From NCBI RefSeq assembly GCF_015624425.1, contig NZ_CP049919.1:992001-1056000 (forward strand): a DNA stretch of 64,000 bases, read 5' to 3'. The notes under the pieces were generated by a model, which was not told the origin of the DNA, did no database searches, and saw nothing but the letters and a program-made list of their open reading frames with translations. The position numbers and the translations under genes were made by a program. Positions within the stretch are counted from its first letter, which is position 1. The number at the start of each line of letters is the position of its first letter. This stretch comes from Roseateles sp. DAIF2 (GTDB lineage Bacteria > Pseudomonadota > Gammaproteobacteria > Burkholderiales > Burkholderiaceae_C). This document shows, one piece after another, positions 7,465 to 18,598 of the stretch.

Positions 7465-9774
7465 ATGAGCAGTAGCAGCAAGTCGACCCTGTCGCCCGCC
7501 GAGGCGGCCCTGCGCGAGGCCGCGCTGGACTATCACCGCAGCCCGACGCGCGGCAAGATCTCGGTGACGCCGACCAAGGCCCTGTCCAACCAGCGTGACC
7601 TGTCGCTGGCCTACTCGCCCGGCGTCGCCTATCCCTGCCTGGACATCGAGGCCGACCCGGCGCTGGCGGCCGACTACACCTCGCGCGGCAACCTGGTCGG
7701 CGTGGTCACCAACGGCACCGCGGTGCTGGGTCTGGGCGATATCGGCCCGCTGGCCGCCAAGCCGGTGATGGAGGGCAAGGGCTGCCTGTTCAAGAAGTTC
7801 GCCGGCATCGATGTGTTCGACATCGAACTGGCCGAGCGCGACCCGGACAAGCTGGTCGAGATCATCGCGGCGATGGAGCCGACCCTGGGCGGCGTCAACC
7901 TCGAGGACATCAAGGCGCCGGAATGCTTCTATATCGAGAAGAAGCTGCGCGATCGCATGAACATCCCGGTGTTCCACGATGACCAGCATGGCACCGCCAT
8001 CATCAGCGCCGCCGCGCTGCTGAACGGGCTGGAGCTAGTGGGCAAGGACATCGCCAAGGTCAAGCTGGTGGCCTCGGGCGCCGGCGCCGCGGCGATCGCC
8101 TGCCTGGACGTGATGGTGGGCCTGGGCGTCAAGCGCGAGCATATCTTCGTGGTCGATTCCAAGGGCGTGATCCGCGTGGGTCGCGGTGACAAACTCGACG
8201 AGAGCAAGCAGCGCTACTGTCAGCAGACCGAGTCGACGACCCTGGCCGACGTGGTCGCCGGGGCCGATGTGTTCCTCGGCTGCTCGGCCGCCGGCGTGCT
8301 GACCCCCGACATGGTCAAGACCATGGCCGACAAGCCCATCATCCTGGCCCTGGCGAATCCGGAGCCGGAGATCCGCCCGGAGCTGGCCAAGGCGGTGCGG
8401 CCCGATTGCATCATCGCGACCGGCCGTTCGGACTATCCGAACCAGGTCAACAACGTCCTGTGCTTCCCCTACATCTTCCGCGGCGCGCTCGACTGCGGCG
8501 CGACCAAGATCACCGAGGAGATGAAGCTGGCCTGCGTGCGCGAAATCGCCGCGCTGGCCAAGGCCGAGACCAGTGACGAGGTGGCGGCCGCCTATGCAGG
8601 CCAGGAGCTGGCCTTCGGCCCCGAGTACTTGATTCCCAAGCCCTTCGACGCGCGCCTGATCCTGCGCATCGCGCCGGCGGTGGCCCAGGCCGCCGCGGCC
8701 TCGGGCGTGGCGACGCGGCCGATCGCTGATCTGGACGCCTACCGCCAGGAGCTGTCGCGCTTCGTCTACCAGACCGGCATGTTCATGCGGCCGGTGTTCG
8801 CCGCCGCCAAGGCCAACCCCGCCCGCGTGATCTACGCCGAGGGCGAGGACGAGCGCGTGCTGCGCGCGGTGCAGGTGGCGCTGGACGAGGGGCTGGTGAA
8901 GCCGACCCTGATCGGCCGCCCCGAGGTGATCGCGATGCGCATCCAGCGCGCCGGCCTGCGCCTGAAGCTGGGCGGCGATGCCGCGGTGATCGATCCGGAG
9001 AACGATCCGCGCTTCCGCCAGTATTGGGAGGCCTACCACCAGGTGATGGGCCGGCGCGGTTTCACGCCCGAGATGGCCAAGGCCGCGGTGCGCCGCTCCA
9101 ACACCACGATCGGCGCGCTGGCGATCAAGCTGGGCGATGCCGACGCGATGATCTGCGGCATGGTCGGCCGCTTTGATTCGCATCTGGAGCATGTGTCCGA
9201 CCTGATCGGCCTGAAGCCCGGCACCCAGACCTTCGCGACGATGAACGCGGTGATGCTGGAGCAGCGCACCCTGTTCATCACCGACACCTTCGTCAACGAC
9301 AACCCCGACGCCGAGCAACTGGCCGCGATCGCCGCGATGGCCGCCGAGGAGGTGCAGCGCTTCGGCCTGCCGGCCAAGCTGGCCTTCGTCTCGCATTCGA
9401 TGTTCGGATCCAGCAAGCGGCCCTCGGCTGTCAAGATGCGGCGCGCGCATGAGCTGTTCGCGGCCGCGCATCCGGAGATCGAGAGCGATGGCGAGATGCA
9501 TGGCGACGCGGCATTGAGCGAGACGGTGCGCGCCACCTTCCTGCCCGACAGCAAGCTGCAGGGCTCGGCCAATCTGCTGGTGCTGCCGACCCTGGACGCG
9601 GCCAACATCCTGTTCAATGTGCTGAAGATCACCGCCGGTCAGGGCGTGACCGTCGGGCCGATCCTGCTCGGCACGGCGGCGCCGGTACATATCCTGACGC
9701 CCTCGGCCACGGTGCGGCGCATCGTCAACATGACGGCGCTGGCTGTTGCGGATGTGCTGGCGGCGAAAAGCTGA
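7465..9774 (+). CDS. maeB: NADP-dependent malic enzyme with phosphotransacetylase-like domain
   Basis: Oxidative decarboxylation of malate to pyruvate, generating NADPH. The N-terminal malic-enzyme domain (about 1-430) shows the substrate region [23 protein letters not shown], and the [10 protein letters not shown] metal-binding motif. The C-terminal third (about 435-769) is homologous to phosphate acetyltransferase; in MaeB proteins this domain is thought to be regulatory (acetyl-CoA sensing) rather than catalytic. The length of 769 residues is typical for this two-domain form. A purine-rich GAGGAGACTCGGGA site precedes the ATG. Its product pyruvate is shared with the next gene, pyk. Confidence 0.97.
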
Positions 9775-11357: not shown

Positions 11358-11908
11358 ATGGCCGGAACCGGATGCGCAGCGCGGCAGGACGCAAATTCAA
11401 ACGGGCGGGAGCGGGACCGGGCGCGCCGGCATTGGCTGCTGCGCGGCGCCGGTCTGTTATGGGCTGCGGCCACCGCCCATCGGGTGGGCGCCGCGCCGAC
11501 CGCACGGCCGGTGCTGAAGCTGGCGATCAGCGAAAGCAGCCCGCGCGCCTTCGTGCTGCCGCTGCTGCGCCCGATCGCCGAGGGCGGCGGCTTCGAATGG
11601 GTGCTGCATCTGCTGCCCTGGGCGCGCCTCTTGGCGCTGTCGGCGCGCGGCGAGATGCTGGCCTTCGGCCTGTCGCGCAATCCGCAGCGCGAGCAGCAGT
11701 ACCTGTTCAGCGAGCCGGTGTTCACCAACCATGTCTGGATGGTGGTGCGCGCCGGCGAGAGCCCGGAATTCGGCGGGCTGGACAGCCTGCGCGGCCGCAC
11801 CCTGTGCCTGACCCGCGGCATCAGCGACGGCACCGTCTTCGACCAGGCGCGCGAGCGCCGGCTGTTCGAGACCCAGCAGGTCGGTCTGGACCTGGTTGGC
11901 CGCCGCAG
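11358..11908 (+). pseudogene. Truncated periplasmic solute-binding protein (family 3 type)
   Basis: The frame from 11358 reads as the first ~180 residues of a transporter substrate-binding domain protein. It has a twin-basic, hydrophobic export leader (about 24-46) and the typical opening LKLAISESSP. The lobe-one pattern follows (LLPWARLLALSARGEMLAFG, then FTNHVWMVVRAGE and GGLDSLRGRTLCLTRGIS). Similarity stops at about 11895-11908. From there the frame continues only as antisense of the next gene, so the second lobe and the C-terminus are missing. The breakpoint carries GTTTTACAACAGCCTG, which nearly equals the end of an inverted-repeat element at 51341-51484. The choice of start is uncertain. 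Confidence 0.7.
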
Positions 11909-11926
11909 TAGTTTTACAACAGCCTG

Positions 11927-12952
11927 TCAGGCGCTGTTCAGCGCGCTCTGCACCAGGGCCGCAATGCGCGGCGTCATGCCGGTGGGCACCAGCAGCACCT
12001 CGGGATGGGCGCGGCCGAAGACGCGGAACAGCTCGTCGGCGAAGCCATGGCCGATCTCCTCGATGCCGTCGAAGCTGATCTCGGCCTGTCGGAACATCGG
12101 CAGCCGCGCGACCACCCGGCGCGCCTGGGCGCGCGAGTCCAGCACCTGGCCCGGGCCGGCCAGCAGGCGCAGGCTGACCGTGGTGCGGTCGAACTCGATG
12201 CCGCTGCCGTCCAGGCTCCAGGCGCCCAGCACCTGGTCCAGGGTGCGCGTGGTGTCCAGCGCGATCGCCATATAGATCGAACTGCCCTCGCGCGGCAGCG
12301 GCCGGCCCGGCTGCCAGCCGGCCGGGTCCCAGGCGCGGCGCTGGAAGGCATGCTTGTTGGCATGGATGTCGAACACATCGGCCAGCTGCGAGCTGAAGAA
12401 CAGGCCGCGGCCGGTATGCGCCGCCGGCTGGCTGGTCAGCCGGCCCTTGCTGAGCTCCAGCATCGCATGCTGGGCGTCGGCGATCGCGAAGCGGCTGCAG
12501 ATCTGCTCGAACACGCCGCAGCCGTCGTCGGAGACCAGCAGCTGGGCATGGCTCGCGGTCTGGCGCAGCGAGACGGTGACGCTGGTGCCGCCGCTGTGGT
12601 CCACCGCGTTGTTGACCAGCTCGGTGAAGCCATGCTGGATCATGCGCGCCACATGGGGCGGCAGCGCGAAATGAGGCGCGAAGTCGCGCTGCCAGGGCAG
12701 GTCCTCCTGCAGGCCGTGCAGGGTGTAGCTGCGTGCCACCTGGCGCAACAGGCCCGGGCCGTAGACCGGGCGGCGCGCGCTGCCCTCGCGCGTCAGCCAT
12801 TGCGACTCGACCAGGCGGCGCAGCGCTGCCTGGGTGGCGCGCCGGCTGGCGCCGGTGCGCTCCATCACATGGTCGATCAGATCCAGCGAATGCTCGCGCG
12901 CGGCGGCGGTCATCCACAGGGTCAGGTGGTCGAGGGCGAGGCGGACGGTCAC
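11927..12952 (-). CDS. Winged-helix / HATPase / STAS-like (DUF4325) regulator
   Basis: One polypeptide of 341 residues from a GTG at 12952. An N-terminal helix-turn-helix region (about 15-65) resembles winged helices. A GHKL ATPase domain follows (about 85-240), with N-box ELVNNAVDHSGG (111-122), G1 box DDGCG (142-146) and G2 box HTGRGLF (179-185). The C-terminal ~90 residues match the DUF4325 STAS-like pattern (SFDGIEEIGHGFADELFRVF). This pairs an anti-sigma-kinase-like ATPase with an antagonist-like domain in one chain, so a self-contained partner-switch regulator is plausible (inference). It faces the truncated solute-binding gene and diverges from fba. An ATG at codon 14 is an alternative start. 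Confidence 0.8.
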   Translation of the reverse strand: MTVRLALDHLTLWMTAAAREHSLDLIDHVMERTGASRRATQAALRRLVESQWLTREGSARRPVYGPGLLRQVARSYTLHGLQEDLPWQRDFAPHFALPPHVARMIQHGFTELVNNAVDHSGGTSVTVSLRQTASHAQLLVSDDGCGVFEQICSRFAIADAQHAMLELSKGRLTSQPAAHTGRGLFFSSQLADVFDIHANKHAFQRRAWDPAGWQPGRPLPREGSSIYMAIALDTTRTLDQVLGAWSLDGSGIEFDRTTVSLRLLAGPGQVLDSRAQARRVVARLPMFRQAEISFDGIEEIGHGFADELFRVFGRAHPEVLLVPTGMTPRIAALVQSALNSA

Positions 12953-13131
12953 GCCGGCGAGGCTAGCGGCGCCGCGGCCCCCGCGCAAGCGCGCTTGCCC
13001 CAGGATGAGGGGTCGGCGTGCCAGCCGCTTGTTACGGTCCGGCCATGCCACACCGCTAGAATCAGCTGCAGTTACGGCGCGGTTACCAAGGCCGCGCCCG
13101 CCAGAATCTGCAACTCCCAGGAGGGCTTCCC

Positions 13132-14196
13132 ATGCCTCTCGTTTCAATGCGCCAGCTGCTGGACCATGCCGCCGAACAGGGCTATGGCATTCCGGCCTTC
13201 AACGTCAACAACCTCGAGCAGGTGCAGGCCGTGATGGCCGCGGCCGACGAGGTCGGCGCGCCGGTGATCCTGCAGGCCAGCGCCGGTGCCCGCAAGTACG
13301 CCGGCGAGCCCTTCATCAAACACCTGATCCTGGCCGCGGTCGAGGCCTATCCGCATATCCCGCTGGTGATGCACCAGGACCATGGCACCAGCCCCAAGGT
13401 CTGCGAGGGCGCGATCAACCTGGGCTTCGGCTCGGTGATGATGGACGGCTCGTTGATGGATGACGGCAAGACCCCGTCCAGCTTCGACTACAACGTGGAC
13501 GTGACCCGCAAGGTCGTCGAGATGGCCCACAAGGTCGGCGTCACCGTCGAGGGCGAGCTGGGTTGCCTGGGCAATCTGGAGACCGGCGACGCCGGCGAGG
13601 AAGACGGCATCGGCGCCGTCGGCAAGCTGGACCACAGCCAGATGCTGACCGACCCGGAAGAGGCGGCCACCTTCGTCAAGGCCACCCAGCTGGACGCGCT
13701 GGCGATCGCCATCGGCACCAGCCATGGCGCCTACAAGTTCTCGCGCAAGCCCACCGGCGACATCCTGGCGATCAGCCGCGTCAAGGAAATCCACAAGCGC
13801 ATCCCGAACACCCATCTGGTGATGCACGGCTCGTCGAGCGTGCCGCAGGAGCTGTTGGCCATCATCAACCAGTACGGCGGCAAGATGAAGGAGACCTTCG
13901 GTGTGCCGGTCGAGGAGATCCAGGAAGCCATCAAGCATGGCGTGCGCAAGATCAATATCGATACCGACATCCGCTTGGCGATGACCGGCGCGGTGCGCAA
14001 GTTCCTGGCCGAGAACCCGGACAAGTTCGATGCGCGCGAATGGCTGAAGCCGGCCCGTGAGGCCGCCAAGCTGATCTGCAAGCAGCGCTACCTCGAGTTC
14101 GGCTGCGAGGGTCAGGCCGGCAAGATCAAGCCGCGCACGCTGGTCGACACCGCCGCCGCCTATGCGCGCGGCGAGCTGAACCAGATCGTCCAGTAA
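13132..14196 (+). CDS. fba: Fructose-bisphosphate aldolase, class II
   Basis: Zinc-dependent cleavage and condensation of fructose-1,6-bisphosphate in glycolysis and gluconeogenesis. The 354-residue product has the Calvin-cycle-subtype class II pattern. This includes the N-terminus [15 protein letters not shown], the metal-site HQDHG (His84 and neighbours), the catalytic region VEGELG, and the KINIDTD phosphate-binding stretch near residue 277. A good GGAGGG site lies 7 bases before the ATG. A TAGAAT hexamer at 13057-13062 is a candidate -10 box. It completes the local set of sugar-phosphate genes. Confidence 0.97.
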
Positions 14197-14288
14197 CCTT
14201 TTGTTTCGCGGACATCCCTAGCGCCTCTGATGGCGCCGGGGGAGGGGCGTGCTTATAGTCGCGGCATTGCCGCCGAGCCCGCCCTGCC

Positions 14289-16331
14289 GTGTTTCATCAC
14301 GATGCCGCCGAATCCCCGCCGCGCCTGTCGCCGCCCGGCCTGAATGGCTTGCCGGGCGAATCCTATGGCCCGCCGCCGCGCAATGCGGCGATGCGGCGGC
14401 GCCTGAAGGTTTTTGTCGCGACCTTCCTGCTCGGCCTGCTGGCGACCCTGGTCTATGACTTTGGCCGCAGCCCGATCTACAAGGCCGATGCCCGCATCCA
14501 GATCACGCCGGCCGCCCGCGCCGCCGCCAGTTCGCCGGCCGGTGCCGAGGGCGGCCCGCAGGGCTTCGGCCTGGAGGTGCAGCTGCTGAGCAGCCGGCCG
14601 CTGCTGGAGGCGGTGCTGCCGCGCCTGCAGGCCGCCGGCCATCTGCGCGAGACGGGTGGCGATTCGGTGGCGCAGCTGCAGCGCATGCTGACCCTGCTGC
14701 CGGTGCCCGGCACCCAGGTGGTCGAGTTGCAGGCCGAAGGGCCGCAGCCGGCGCTGACCGCGGCGCTCCTGAACACCCTGATCGAGGTCTACCGCGAGCG
14801 CCAGCTCGAGGCCGGCGACGCAAGCCAGCTGACCCAGCTCGACGATGCGCGCGAGGAGCTGCGTGTGATCGAGGCGCGGGTGCAGCAGCAGCGCCGCGCG
14901 CTGGACAGCTTCCGGCAGCGCGCCAACATCGTCTCGGCGGAGCGCGACGAGAACCAGACCCTGTCGCGCCTGAAGGGCATCGGCGCCTCGCTGAATACCG
15001 TCAACGAGCGCGAGGCCGCCGCGGCCGGCAAGGTGCATGCGATCGAGCAGGCGATCGCCGAGGGCAAGCGCACGCCGCAGGCGCGCGACAACCCGACCAT
15101 TGCCGGTATCGAGAACCGGCTGTCGCAGAACCGCGAGGAATGGCGCTCGCTGGAGCGCCAGTACACGCCGCAGTACCTGGAGCTGGACCCGGCGGCGCGT
15201 TCGCTGAAGAGCCGCATCGCCAACCTGGAGCAGCAGCTCGAGACCGAGCGCCGCGCCAGCCAGCAGACCGCGCTGGCCGATGCGCGCGAGGAGCTGCGCA
15301 TGGCCCAGGTCACCGGCCAGCGCCTGCAGCAGCAGCTGGTCGAGGATCGGCAGGGCGTGCAGGCCTTCGGGCGCCGCTTTGCCGAACATCAGGGCCTGCA
15401 GGAAGAGCTGGCCGGGCTGGAGAAGCTGCAGCAGGCGGCCAAGCAGAAGCTGCTGGCGCTGGAGGCCGGCGAGCGCACGCGGCGGCCGCGCGTCGAGGTG
15501 CTGGAGCATGCGGTGGTGCCGCAGGAGCCCTGGCGCCCGTCCTACTGGCGCGATGCCGGCTTCGGCCTGGTGATGGCCCTGCTGCTGGGCCTGCTGGCGG
15601 TCTGGTTCATCGAGTTCTTCGACCGTCGCGATCCGCGCCAGGGGCCCACGGTCGTGATCGCGCCGTCCTGGGGGGGCATGCCGGCGGCGAACTCGCCACA
15701 ACTGGCTGGGGCCATGGCGCCGGCCCTGCCGCATGGCTTCGACCTGCCGCGGCTGGGTCAGGCGCTGGAGCCGCTGCGCGAACTGGAGCAGGAGGAGGTG
15801 GCGCGACTGCTGGCGCATGCCGCGCCCGAGCCGCGCGCGATGCTGGCCTGCCTGCTGTGCGGGCTCAGCGTCGACGAGGTGGTGGCGCTGCCGCTCGGCG
15901 CGGTCGACGCCCAGGCCGGCCAGCTGCGGCTGCGCGGCGATTCGCCGCGCGAGCTGGTGCTGCCGCCGCTGCTGCGCGGCTGGGCGGCGCGCCGCGGCGA
16001 GCAGACCCAGCATCCCGAGGCGCCGCTGTTCGTGCGGCCCGGCGGCCAGACGCCGATCGACGCCCAGGACGTGCGCGCCGCGGTCACCTCGAGCGCGCTG
16101 GATGCCGAGCTGGATCAGCCGCAGACGGTCAGCGCCGAGTCGCTGCGCCATAGCCACATCGCCTTCCTGCTGCGCCAGGGCCTGCGTTTCGGCGAGCTGG
16201 CGCCGCTGGTCGGGCGCCTGCCGCCGGAAACCCTGTCGCAGCTGGCGGCGCTGGCGCCCGGCGGGCCGCGCCTGTCGCGCGACCAGGTCGAGCCGCTGAT
16301 GCCGGCGCTGCGACGCGCGAGCCTGAGCTAG
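14289..16331 (+). CDS. Wzz/GNVR-type membrane protein fused to a degenerate tyrosine-recombinase-like domain
   Basis: Codes for 680 residues from GTG 14289; an ATG at 14391 (residue 35) is an alternative start. Transmembrane helix 1 is at about 39-57. A long periplasmic, largely coiled-coil region follows (about 150-400). The GNVR-like segment NREEWRSLERQYTPQYLELD precedes transmembrane helix 2 (about 422-445). This is the polysaccharide co-polymerase layout. Where a tyrosine kinase often sits there are ~190 cytoplasmic residues resembling the catalytic domain of XerC/D-type recombinases: CGLSVDEVVALPLG (524-537), a beta-hairpin LRGDSPRELVLP, and SLRHSH (618-623) followed by LAPLVGR. The first catalytic Arg is Ser527, the GH histidine is Arg643, and the tyrosine is absent, so it should be inactive. 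The stop codon overlaps a repeat element. No polysaccharide genes flank it. Confidence 0.8.
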   Translation: MFHHDAAESPPRLSPPGLNGLPGESYGPPPRNAAMRRRLKVFVATFLLGLLATLVYDFGRSPIYKADARIQITPAARAAASSPAGAEGGPQGFGLEVQLLSSRPLLEAVLPRLQAAGHLRETGGDSVAQLQRMLTLLPVPGTQVVELQAEGPQPALTAALLNTLIEVYRERQLEAGDASQLTQLDDAREELRVIEARVQQQRRALDSFRQRANIVSAERDENQTLSRLKGIGASLNTVNEREAAAAGKVHAIEQAIAEGKRTPQARDNPTIAGIENRLSQNREEWRSLERQYTPQYLELDPAARSLKSRIANLEQQLETERRASQQTALADAREELRMAQVTGQRLQQQLVEDRQGVQAFGRRFAEHQGLQEELAGLEKLQQAAKQKLLALEAGERTRRPRVEVLEHAVVPQEPWRPSYWRDAGFGLVMALLLGLLAVWFIEFFDRRDPRQGPTVVIAPSWGGMPAANSPQLAGAMAPALPHGFDLPRLGQALEPLRELEQEEVARLLAHAAPEPRAMLACLLCGLSVDEVVALPLGAVDAQAGQLRLRGDSPRELVLPPLLRGWAARRGEQTQHPEAPLFVRPGGQTPIDAQDVRAAVTSSALDAELDQPQTVSAESLRHSHIAFLLRQGLRFGELAPLVGRLPPETLSQLAALAPGGPRLSRDQVEPLMPALRRASLS

Positions 16332-16525
16332 GGCCTGTTCATGCTATGGCAGTCAGCCGCGAAGGCCCGCCCCTCGGGGGCGAACCTTCCCGCAGGGTTG
16401 TGACCAGAAAGACCGCATGCGGCGTTGCAAATCCTCGCCGGGTGTCCAACCCGGCTGCGGTTTGCGCCTTGCCTGCAGCCTTTCTGGTCACAACGCGACT
16501 TGCTGCCCTAGCGTGAACAGGCCCT
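16330..16525. repeat. 196-bp nested palindromic (MITE-like) element
   Basis: The outer ends AGGGCCTGTTCATGCTA and, on the other strand, AGGGCCTGTTCACGCTA match with one difference and extend imperfectly to about 24 bp. Inside lies a perfect 14-bp inverted repeat, TTGTGACCAGAAAG (16398-16411) against CTTTCTGGTCACAA (16480-16493). A further nested stem CCGGGT/ACCCGG lies at 16438-16454. No coding frame is convincing. The left end supplies the last two bases of the upstream gene's TAG stop codon. It lies between the Wzz-like gene and purC. Confidence 0.7.
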
Positions 16526-17497: not shown

Positions 17498-18598
17498 ATG
17501 GCTCAGAAATCGCGCCTGCACCAGCGCCTGGACAAGGCCATCGCGGCCGCGCCGGACCAACTGCAGTCGGCCGGCCTGCGGGCGCAGCGCGCGGTGCTGC
17601 AGGCGCGCCATGGCCAGCTGAAGGCGGCGCGCCATGAGCTGACCGCGCTGCACCAGCTGGCCTTCCAGCATCCGCATCCGCACCTGGGTGCCTGGCTGCA
17701 TCTGGCCGAGGGCCTGATGAGCTATTTCACCGATTTCAGCGGTGGGGCTTACGAGAAGCTCATGCGCGCCCGTGCCATCGCCCAGCTGGCCGGGCTGGCC
17801 GAGGTCGAGGCGCTGGCCACGGCCTGGCTGGCGCATCTGGCCTATGTGCGGCACGACATCGACGGGCTGGTGGCCCATGCCCAGGCCTGTCGGGCGCTGG
17901 CCGGCGCGGATCAGCATGCGGCCCAAAGCCGCCTGGCGATTGCGCTCGGCTTGGCGCACCATTTCGCCGGCCGCGTCGACCTGACCCAGCCCTGGTACGC
18001 CAAGGCCCGCCAGCATGCGCTGGCCGAGGGCGACGACGCCACCCAATCGGCCCTGATGTACAACATGGCGGAGATGCGCACCGCCCATGTGCGACGCGAC
18101 GCGCTGAGCCATCCGACCAAGCCGGTGCCCGAGCTGCTGCTCAGCGCCGACTCGATCGAGCGCTATGACGAGGCGGTCGGGGGCTCGGCGATGAGCGAGC
18201 TGACGCCGATCCTGCGTGCGCAGATCCAGACGGTGCGCGGCGACTATGCGGCCGCCTGCGAGCTCTATGAGCGCCACCTGCCGCAGGCCATCTCCTGCGG
18301 CCTGGCGCGCCTGGGCAGCAGCATGCTGGCCGATCTGGCCTGGTGCCGCGTGCAGATGGGGCAGCGCGAGCTGGCGCTGCAGCAGGCGCGCGAGTCGGAG
18401 CTGGAGCTGGACCCGGCCTGCGATGTGGATGACCGCGCCGCCACCCATAGCCGTCTGGCCCAGGTCTACCAGGAACTCGGCGATGCCGAGGCCGCGGCCC
18501 GCCATGCGGCGAGCGCGGCGGCCGAATGGGCCGAGCTGGAGCGCCAGCAGCGACACTGGGTTGAGTCGCTGCAAGCGGCCGGCCTGGCCCGGCCTTAG
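17498..18598 (+). CDS. TPR-like helical-repeat protein of unknown function
   Basis: Codes for 366 residues composed almost entirely of Ala/Leu-rich helix pairs of tetratricopeptide type. They can be followed from about residue 20 to the end (for example ALQQARESELELDPACD and HSRLAQVYQELGDAEAAARH). There is no signal peptide, membrane helix or catalytic domain, so it is probably a cytosolic scaffold. It sits 9 bp after purC and is likely co-transcribed. Its stop codon overlaps the stop of the convergent thioredoxin-like gene. Function is not assignable. Confidence 0.75.
   Translation: MAQKSRLHQRLDKAIAAAPDQLQSAGLRAQRAVLQARHGQLKAARHELTALHQLAFQHPHPHLGAWLHLAEGLMSYFTDFSGGAYEKLMRARAIAQLAGLAEVEALATAWLAHLAYVRHDIDGLVAHAQACRALAGADQHAAQSRLAIALGLAHHFAGRVDLTQPWYAKARQHALAEGDDATQSALMYNMAEMRTAHVRRDALSHPTKPVPELLLSADSIERYDEAVGGSAMSELTPILRAQIQTVRGDYAAACELYERHLPQAISCGLARLGSSMLADLAWCRVQMGQRELALQQARESELELDPACDVDDRAATHSRLAQVYQELGDAEAAARHAASAAAEWAELERQQRHWVESLQAAGLARP

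What the first reader, a model, noticed from the sequence alone, without database searches (positions are those of the whole stretch)
14289..16331. Polysaccharide co-polymerase scaffold fused to a dead tyrosine-recombinase fold
Seen: two membrane helices flank a long coiled-coil periplasmic region with a GNVR-like segment. About 190 cytoplasmic residues then follow that align with the XerC/D catalytic domain (CGLSVDEVVAL, the beta-hairpin LRGDSPRELVLP, SLRHSH, LAPLVGR). Arg-I is Ser527, the GH histidine is Arg643, and no tyrosine lies where the nucleophile belongs. Known: Wzz/Wzc proteins usually carry nothing or a BY-kinase at this place. Inference: a recombinase fold has been repurposed as a membrane-tethered DNA- or protein-binding module. 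The gene is an orphan between fba and purC, away from polysaccharide loci.
Basis: partly seen in the sequence, partly recalled or inferred. Interest (0 to 1): 0.78.

Follow-up and report, generated by a model that had tools for sequence, protein, structure and literature searches.

The report
Polysaccharide co-polymerase with dead recombinase domain
A membrane protein of the kind that helps bacteria build long surface sugars carries, inside the cell, a DNA-recombinase domain that has lost its active site and its positive charge, suggesting that a DNA enzyme's shape was reused to control sugar export rather than to act on DNA.

Summary
ORF 14289-16331 encodes a GumC/Wzc-type polysaccharide co-polymerase (PCP) followed by about 180 cytoplasmic residues homologous to the Xer catalytic domain (hhalign 97.6%, E 2.7e-12). 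I aligned 272 distinct fusions from Burkholderiales, Zoogloea/Thauera, Methylococcales and Nitrosospira; 0 of 272 keeps the full catalytic set, yet Arg-II survives in 270.

(1) The tyrosine position is still Tyr in 140 of 272, none with Arg-I; on a 68-row tree it turned to Leu once, in the window's clade. (2) Net charge of the domain is zero or negative in 272 of 272, against a mean of +2.7 per 100 residues, 1 of 33 negative, in real recombinase domains of the own and related genomes. This argues against DNA binding.

Neighbours vary; in at least 5 of 28 named loci a Wzy-like polymerase gene is directly upstream.

Best reading: a PCP-2-like protein in which a pseudo-recombinase sits where Wzc has its tyrosine kinase, acting as a phosphorylation-independent scaffold, as proposed for the pseudokinase EcpK. 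The mechanism is inferred; structure prediction never ran. Eight literature searches found no description.

The parts
14289..16331 (+). Whole coding sequence, 680 aa, GTG start (start codon not proven)
   Evidence: first residue lines up with the Met of 88 of 120 listed relatives
14254..14259 (+). TATAGT, possible -10 hexamer of an own promoter
   Evidence: TATAGT upstream in 9 of 14 members of the window's clade and 9 of 35 in all; hexamer set expected in 2.7 of 35 by shuffles, largest 8 of 300 shuffles. The full sigma-70 scan found no site
14391..14621 (+). Wzz domain, residues 35-111, with membrane helix 1 at about 38-59
14622..15545 (+). Periplasmic part, residues 112-419, with long helical stretches (inferred topology)
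   Evidence: co-polymerase models; Wzc similarity at 127-261
15546..15626 (+). Membrane helix 2, residues about 420-446
   Evidence: lowest mean entropy of the stretches compared
15627..15776 (+). Variable linker, residues 447-496
   Evidence: mean entropy 2.41 against 1.3-2.0 in the neighbouring stretches
15777..16319 (+). Pseudo-recombinase (Xer-like) domain, residues 497-677
15867..15869 (+). Ser527 at the Arg-I position
   Evidence: Arg in 9 of 272, Ser or Thr in 236
16137..16139 (+). Glu617 at the HxxR histidine position
   Evidence: His in 4 of 272, Glu or Asp in 205
16146..16148 (+). Arg620 = Arg-II, kept
   Evidence: Arg in 270 of 272
16215..16217 (+). Arg643 at the GH histidine position
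   Evidence: Arg 122, Tyr 86, His 14 of 272
16242..16244 (+). Leu652 at the position of the nucleophilic tyrosine
   Evidence: Tyr in 140, Leu in 127, other in 5 of 272; one change on the tree

Best explanation
The gene encodes a PCP-2-like inner-membrane polysaccharide co-polymerase whose cytoplasmic domain is a domesticated Xer-type catalytic domain, at the place where Wzc carries its tyrosine kinase. SHOWN by sequence: the fusion, its conservation across several groups of bacteria, loss of the recombinase active site, retention of Arg-II and of the Q-G-L-R segment, one loss of the tyrosine leading to the window's clade, and a neutral-to-acidic domain. INFERRED: (1) the periplasmic part forms a ring with a Wzy polymerase and governs chain growth or export, as in known co-polymerases; (2) the pseudo-recombinase domain lies under the membrane and sets or steadies the oligomeric state through protein-protein contacts without phosphorylation, as proposed for the pseudokinases EcpK and HfsB, perhaps through the cyclic contacts that recombinase domains make between protomers (recalled); (3) the pocket around Arg620 binds an anionic ligand or is kept for structure.
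For: Family of fusions. One profile of 30 members hits both a XerC-like structure (E 3.5e-11) and Wzc (E 3.8e-7). hhalign to 18 Xer/integrase domains: 97.6%, 97.7% with an alignment of 57 database relatives and the window, 95.5% with the Tyr clade. Dead: 0 of 272 with the full set. Acidic to neutral in 272 of 272 against controls. The domain varies about as little as the periplasmic part (mean entropy 1.84 against 1.72-1.98), and G525, Q630, G631 and P672 are the same in 272 of 272. Wzy_C-like gene directly upstream in at least 5 of 28 named loci, with ugd beyond. Precedent for a dead cytoplasmic domain as PCP-2 scaffold: PMC12004946 (abstract and passages); the Wzc octamer cycle: PMC8285477 (abstract).
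Against: No structure or experiment. In the window's genome and at most other loci looked at, no polysaccharide gene is a direct neighbour. The co-polymerase models match far below their cut-offs. The Wzy-like protein is in 5 of 10 carriers and 6 of 32 non-carriers, and not in the window's genome, so it is no obligate partner. Distribution is patchy. A lysine lies in the hairpin 547-553 in 48 of 272 and a His at the GH position in 14, so remnants of the active site are not gone everywhere.
Confidence: 0.5

Rival explanations
1. Membrane-tethered DNA-binding domain: the dead recombinase still binds DNA and ties the chromosome or gene control to the envelope (one half of the first reader's inference).
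For: Homology to a DNA-binding fold; Arg-II kept in 270 of 272; dead recombinase relatives in eukaryotes bind DNA (Ndc10, seen as a reference title; otherwise recalled).
Against: Net charge zero or negative in 272 of 272, 1 of 33 controls negative; no core-binding domain model listed.
Confidence: 0.1
2. Decoy or sensor of the Xer/FtsK division machinery: the domain binds XerC, XerD or FtsK at the membrane and links polysaccharide output to division or dimer resolution.
For: Xer ancestry and membrane location; Xer catalytic domains contact FtsK and each other (recalled). In L037 an ORF that looks like a tyrosine recombinase by eye lies about 1.2 kb downstream, 1 of 28 loci.
Against: No conserved linkage; interface residues not tested.
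Confidence: 0.06
3. Part of the exosortase/PEP-CTERM polysaccharide system, as an extra co-polymerase.
For: Exosortase in 10 of 10 carriers against 127 of 369 in the class; 6 of 6 carriers within that sample, p 0.0015, or 0.013 without the window's genome and with one genus counted once; nearest named model of two distant members is the XrtA-system chain-length family.
Against: Not corrected for kinship; both same-genus non-carriers have exosortases too; no PrsR/sigma-54-like motif in 35 upstream regions; exosortases of the window's genome lie more than 1.7 Mb away, next to other Wzz genes.
Confidence: 0.2
4. A decaying passenger: the recombinase part is a leftover without function.
For: Patchy presence and loss of the tyrosine in one clade.
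Against: Domain about as conserved as the rest, with four residues invariant in 272 of 272.
Confidence: 0.05
5. A still active recombinase or nuclease of an unusual kind.
For: Arg-II together with Tyr in 140 of 272.
Against: Arg-I absent in all 140; full set in 0 of 272; acidic domain.
Confidence: 0.02

Closest known systems
PCP-2a co-polymerase with BY-kinase (Wzc of E. coli)
   Same: Wzz-type N-terminal part, two membrane helices, helical periplasmic part and a cytoplasmic C-terminal domain in one chain; sequence similarity at 127-261 and with profile A5
   Different: The cytoplasmic domain is recombinase-like; no kinase model is listed
EcpK/EpsV and HfsB/HfsA (BY pseudokinase scaffolds of PCP-2 proteins; PMC12004946, abstract and passages)
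   Same: A dead cytoplasmic domain proposed to support a co-polymerase by protein contacts
   Different: Those are separate kinase-fold proteins; here it is a fused recombinase fold, and the role is inferred only
Xer-type tyrosine recombinases (XerA, XerC, XerD)
   Same: Catalytic-domain homology over about 150 residues, Arg-II kept
   Different: Active site incomplete, no core-binding domain model, acidic to neutral, tethered to a membrane protein
Dead tyrosine-recombinase relatives in eukaryotes (Ndc10, Crypton-derived genes; titles and abstract starts, otherwise recalled)
   Same: A recombinase relative used without recombination
   Different: Those known to me are DNA-binding or nuclear; this one is bacterial, membrane-bound and acidic

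Membership tests
PCP / Wzz superfamily | Wzz domain with two flanking membrane helices | tested here: met
   Pfam PF02706 over its cut-off (27.4 against 25.5 bits); hydropathy
PCP-2a (Wzc-like) | Cytoplasmic BY-kinase domain | tested here: not met
   No kinase model in Pfam at E up to 10; NCBIfam Wzc-type models match only outside the C-terminal domain
PCP-2 | Octameric assembly cycling with the state of the cytoplasmic domain | not testable with these tools
   Needs biochemistry or complex modelling; structure prediction never ran
PCP | Gene lies with Wzx/Wzy polysaccharide genes | tested here: inconclusive
   Not here; Wzy_C-like gene and ugd beside it in 5 of 28 named loci; the other 23 were not annotated gene by gene
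Tyrosine recombinase (Xer type) | Catalytic-domain homology | tested here: met
Tyrosine recombinase (Xer type) | Catalytic Arg-I, His, Arg-II, His/Trp, Tyr | tested here: not met
   0 of 272 members
Tyrosine recombinase (Xer type) | N-terminal core-binding domain | tested here: not met
   No such model listed for the full protein at E up to 10
Tyrosine recombinase (Xer type) | Basic, DNA-binding surface | tested here: not met
   Whole-domain net charge only: 0 of 272 positive against 31 of 33 positive, one zero, one negative; the surface itself could not be modelled
Tyrosine recombinase (Xer type) | Predicted fold superposes on XerD/XerA | not tested
Exosortase/PEP-CTERM system | PrsR/sigma-54 promoter motif upstream of single-gene units | tested here: not met
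   0 of 35 upstream regions at up to 2 mismatches, best 4; motif letters recalled, start codons mechanical
Exosortase/PEP-CTERM system | Genome encodes an exosortase | tested here: met
   10 of 10 carriers tested; background 127 of 369

The most novel reading that the evidence does not exclude
A third kind of PCP-2 controller: besides active BY-kinases and BY pseudokinases, a domesticated Xer domain forms a cytoplasmic ring under the co-polymerase and drives its assembly cycle through recombinase-style contacts between protomers, with the kept Arg-II pocket (and the kept Tyr in the other clades) as its switch: a DNA-recombination fold turned into a regulator of polysaccharide export.
Probability: 0.33. 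Interest if true: 0.78.

Novelty: new variant of a known kind. Interest (0 to 1): 0.62.

Why it matters
Several public records name members 'integrase', 'Phage integrase', 'tyrosine-type recombinase' or 'GumC', so an envelope protein is in part labelled as a DNA recombinase. If the reading holds, a recombinase catalytic domain has been exapted away from DNA altogether, and co-polymerases have a further way of being controlled without tyrosine phosphorylation. The split between Tyr-keeping and Leu clades is a natural experiment on which parts of the old active site still matter.

Tried and rejected
Structure prediction of the domain was the decisive test and never ran. Mobile origin: two peptide patterns of the full-length alignment gave 49 stretches in viral contigs, none a relative; plasmids gave one partial match to a Sphingomonas autokinase. 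PrsR/sigma-54 control: not supported. Wzy-like gene as obligate partner: rejected. Exosortase link: kept as a hint only. Arg-I = Arg in 9 members: 4 changes on the tree, so read as regained, not ancestral; that tree is a quick one, its root is for drawing only, and it warns of long branches (L061, L064, L065, L037) and of uneven composition in 11 rows.

Free-standing domain: the domain search (capped at 8000 candidates, 116-370 aa) gave 23 proteins. 16 are strong (E 2.9e-26 or better) and align best to C-terminal parts of the fusions; 11 of the 16 lie on contigs under 2.5 kb. Five lie on longer contigs (P0244, P0249, P0251, P0254, P0255), which I did not inspect; P0244, P0249 and P0255 also contain periplasmic and membrane parts, P0249 is labelled partial, and P0251 (237 aa, 10.7-kb contig) and P0254 hold the domain without the membrane part. 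So I cannot exclude rare split genes. The other 7 are ordinary recombinases (E 2.2e-10 or weaker).

Rows dropped: 5 of 38 control rows with 123 residues or fewer (L008, L010 and L011 positive, L095, a 37-residue piece, negative, L108 empty). Controls are mostly XerD-like. From 274 rows, 2 duplicates were removed; L042 (partial) was left out. The 240 database proteins are the best rows of two searches capped at 8000 candidates, not a random sample. In one search control L005 was read on the wrong strand; one search replaced it. G057 is a weak match, 52 bits in a 304-aa frame, and gave no family member.

Literature: ten searches, of which eight sought this architecture; none of their four hits describes it by listing, passages (PMC10734457; PMC1569441) or abstract start (PMC6805351, PMC12632851). 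The library holds openly licensed PMC papers only. Seen: PMC12004946 abstract and passages; PMC8285477 abstract; PMC1569441 and PMC10734457 passages; PMC6077249 one reference entry; others as listings.

Full report
WHAT IS THERE. ORF 14289-16331 (+) encodes 680 aa and is the only full-length copy in its genome. Pfam Wzz covers 35-111, just above its cut-off. NCBIfam co-polymerase models cover parts of 99-459 and tyrosine-recombinase models parts of 498-642, all below their cut-offs. Hydrophobic stretches lie at about 38-59 and 420-446. With Arg-rich flanks (MRRR before helix 1, FFDRRDPR after helix 2) the C-terminal 230 residues should be cytoplasmic; this is inference from the positive-inside rule. 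The nearest solved relatives of the whole protein are Wzc kinases, E 5.5e-5.

IT IS A FAMILY. The query found 278 proteins at E up to 1e-3 among the 8000 candidates scored; the 120 listed are 570-796 aa, 46-67% identical apart from the query itself. A distant member (L062) found 334; the 120 listed are 627-677 aa and, where named, come from Methylotuvimicrobium, Methylobacter, Methylicorpusculum, Nitrosospira, Nitrosovibrio and other Methylococcales or gammaproteobacteria. Named genome contigs gave 28 loci: Rhodoferax, Pseudorhodoferax, Variovorax, Paucibacter, Rubrivivax, Zoogloea, Thauera, Azoarcus and MAGs named only to higher ranks. Presence is patchy: 1 of 3 genomes of the genus, 5 of 120 of the family at 176 bits or more, 6 of 369 of the class, the window's genome counted each time. 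These searches score a limited number of first-look candidates, so single absences are not certain.

THE C-TERMINAL DOMAIN IS XER-LIKE. A profile of 28 domains hits XerA 5hxy at E 5.6e-9, then XerC-like, integron and phage integrases and XerD. hhalign against 18 Xer/integrase domains: 97.6%, E 2.7e-12, 152 columns. The 57-row full-length alignment gives 97.7% over 129 columns that stop before the tyrosine. The 30-row Tyr clade gives 95.5%, and there the conserved Tyr falls on the catalytic Tyr. An unrelated membrane-protein profile gives 0.1%. The 30-row profile hits a XerC-like structure and Wzc at once.

IT IS DEAD, IN A PATTERNED WAY. Over 272 distinct fusions: Arg-I position Arg in 9, Ser/Thr in 236; HxxR histidine His in 4, Glu/Asp in 205; Arg-II Arg in 270; GH histidine Arg 122, Tyr 86, His 14; tyrosine position Tyr 140, Leu 127, other 5. 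A lysine lies within 547-553 in 48. No member has both Arg-I and Tyr; none has the full set. On a quick tree of 68 members from the co-polymerase half alone, Leu needs one change: 34 Leu members form one side of a branch (SH-aLRT 100); of the other 34, 33 have Tyr and one Cys. If Tyr is ancestral, as the Xer relationship implies, it outlived the rest of the active site in the other clades, which suggests a use of its own.

IT IS UNLIKELY TO BIND DNA. Net charge of residues 497-677 is zero or negative in 272 of 272 (means -3.1, -4.0 and -3.5 per 100 aa in the three sets). 33 real recombinase domains, from searches of the own and 23 related genomes, average +2.7, range -0.6 to +4.4, one negative and one zero. 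Whole-domain charge is a proxy; a local basic patch is not excluded.

SELDOM IF EVER ALONE. The domain search gave no clear free-standing protein; details and the unresolved cases are in Tried and rejected.

SURROUNDINGS. Here: pyk, a DUF4325/HATPase gene on the other strand, fba, the gene, a repeat, purC. Elsewhere: genes that look like hemA-prfA-prmC (L016) and nagZ-acpS (L018) by eye, gpmI in Zoogloea loci, napC in Thauera-type loci, malate synthase and an SPFH protein (L064), an SNF2 helicase and a fatty-acid hydroxylase (L062), a urea transporter (L067). In Pseudorhodoferax and Variovorax (L019, L020, L022, L023, L029) the upstream gene on the same strand encodes a 654-677-aa membrane protein with a weak Wzy_C match in the two tested (E 8e-5 and 0.0021, below cut-off), and a UDP-glucose dehydrogenase gene lies beyond it on the other strand. 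Relatives of that protein are in 5 of 10 carriers and 6 of 32 non-carriers (one-sided p 0.064). TATAGT precedes the gene in 9 of 14 members of the window's clade, 4 of the 5 Wzy loci among them, so an own promoter is likely there; the stricter sigma-70 scan found none in the window.

EXOSORTASE. Carriers: 10 of 10 have PF09721; so do both same-genus non-carriers. Class background 127 of 369; 6 of 6 carriers in that sample, p 0.0015; without the window's genome 0.0045; with one genus also counted once 0.013. No correction for kinship. No PrsR-like motif in 35 upstream regions. A hint about lifestyle or origin, not membership.

HOW IT PROBABLY WORKS. In PCP-2 proteins the oligomeric state is set by a cytoplasmic tyrosine kinase, fused or separate; the dead kinase EcpK is proposed to do this by contact alone (PMC12004946, abstract and passages); unphosphorylated Wzc is an octamer that phosphorylation takes apart (PMC8285477, abstract). 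Here a dead recombinase sits at that place, is conserved and is acidic. The simplest reading is a scaffold or assembly domain that acts by protein contacts. That recombinase domains contact each other cyclically is recalled knowledge and makes a ring plausible. None of this last step is shown.

NOVELTY. Each half is known and pipelines already tag members as 'integrase' or 'GumC'. The combination was not found described in eight searches of the held library. I call it a new variant of a known kind with an unusual exaptation.

Noticed in passing
16330-16525: Palindromic element between the stop codon and purC: 32-nt arms 84% complementary, with a second inner inverted repeat. Parts of it recur in the genome: 8 places of 141-206 bp at 78-100% identity among 22 matches. 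Looks like a dispersed intergenic repeat; in some copies the first 44 bp are set apart from the rest.
   Followed up: partly
11930-13147: Minus-strand gene between pyk and fba with a HATPase domain and a C-terminal STAS-like DUF4325 domain.
   Followed up: no
11358-12275: ORF without any Pfam match at E up to 1e-4 whose first 200 residues look by eye like a substrate-binding protein and whose end overlaps the gene on the other strand; perhaps a broken gene.
   Followed up: no
L012 and L014 (own genome): Two of the three other Wzz genes of the genome lie about 2 and 8 kb from an exosortase gene (places).
   Followed up: partly
L031:10031-11041: In Zoogloea sp. LCSB751 a second ORF (336 aa) 2 kb downstream of the fusion is 25% identical to its co-polymerase half only.
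   Followed up: no
L019, L020, L022, L023, L029: The Wzy_C-like protein upstream has a long soluble insert (about residues 405-585) whose sequence resembles a carbohydrate-binding module by eye.
   Followed up: no
17498-18598: 366-aa ORF after purC without any Pfam match at E up to 1e-4.
   Followed up: no
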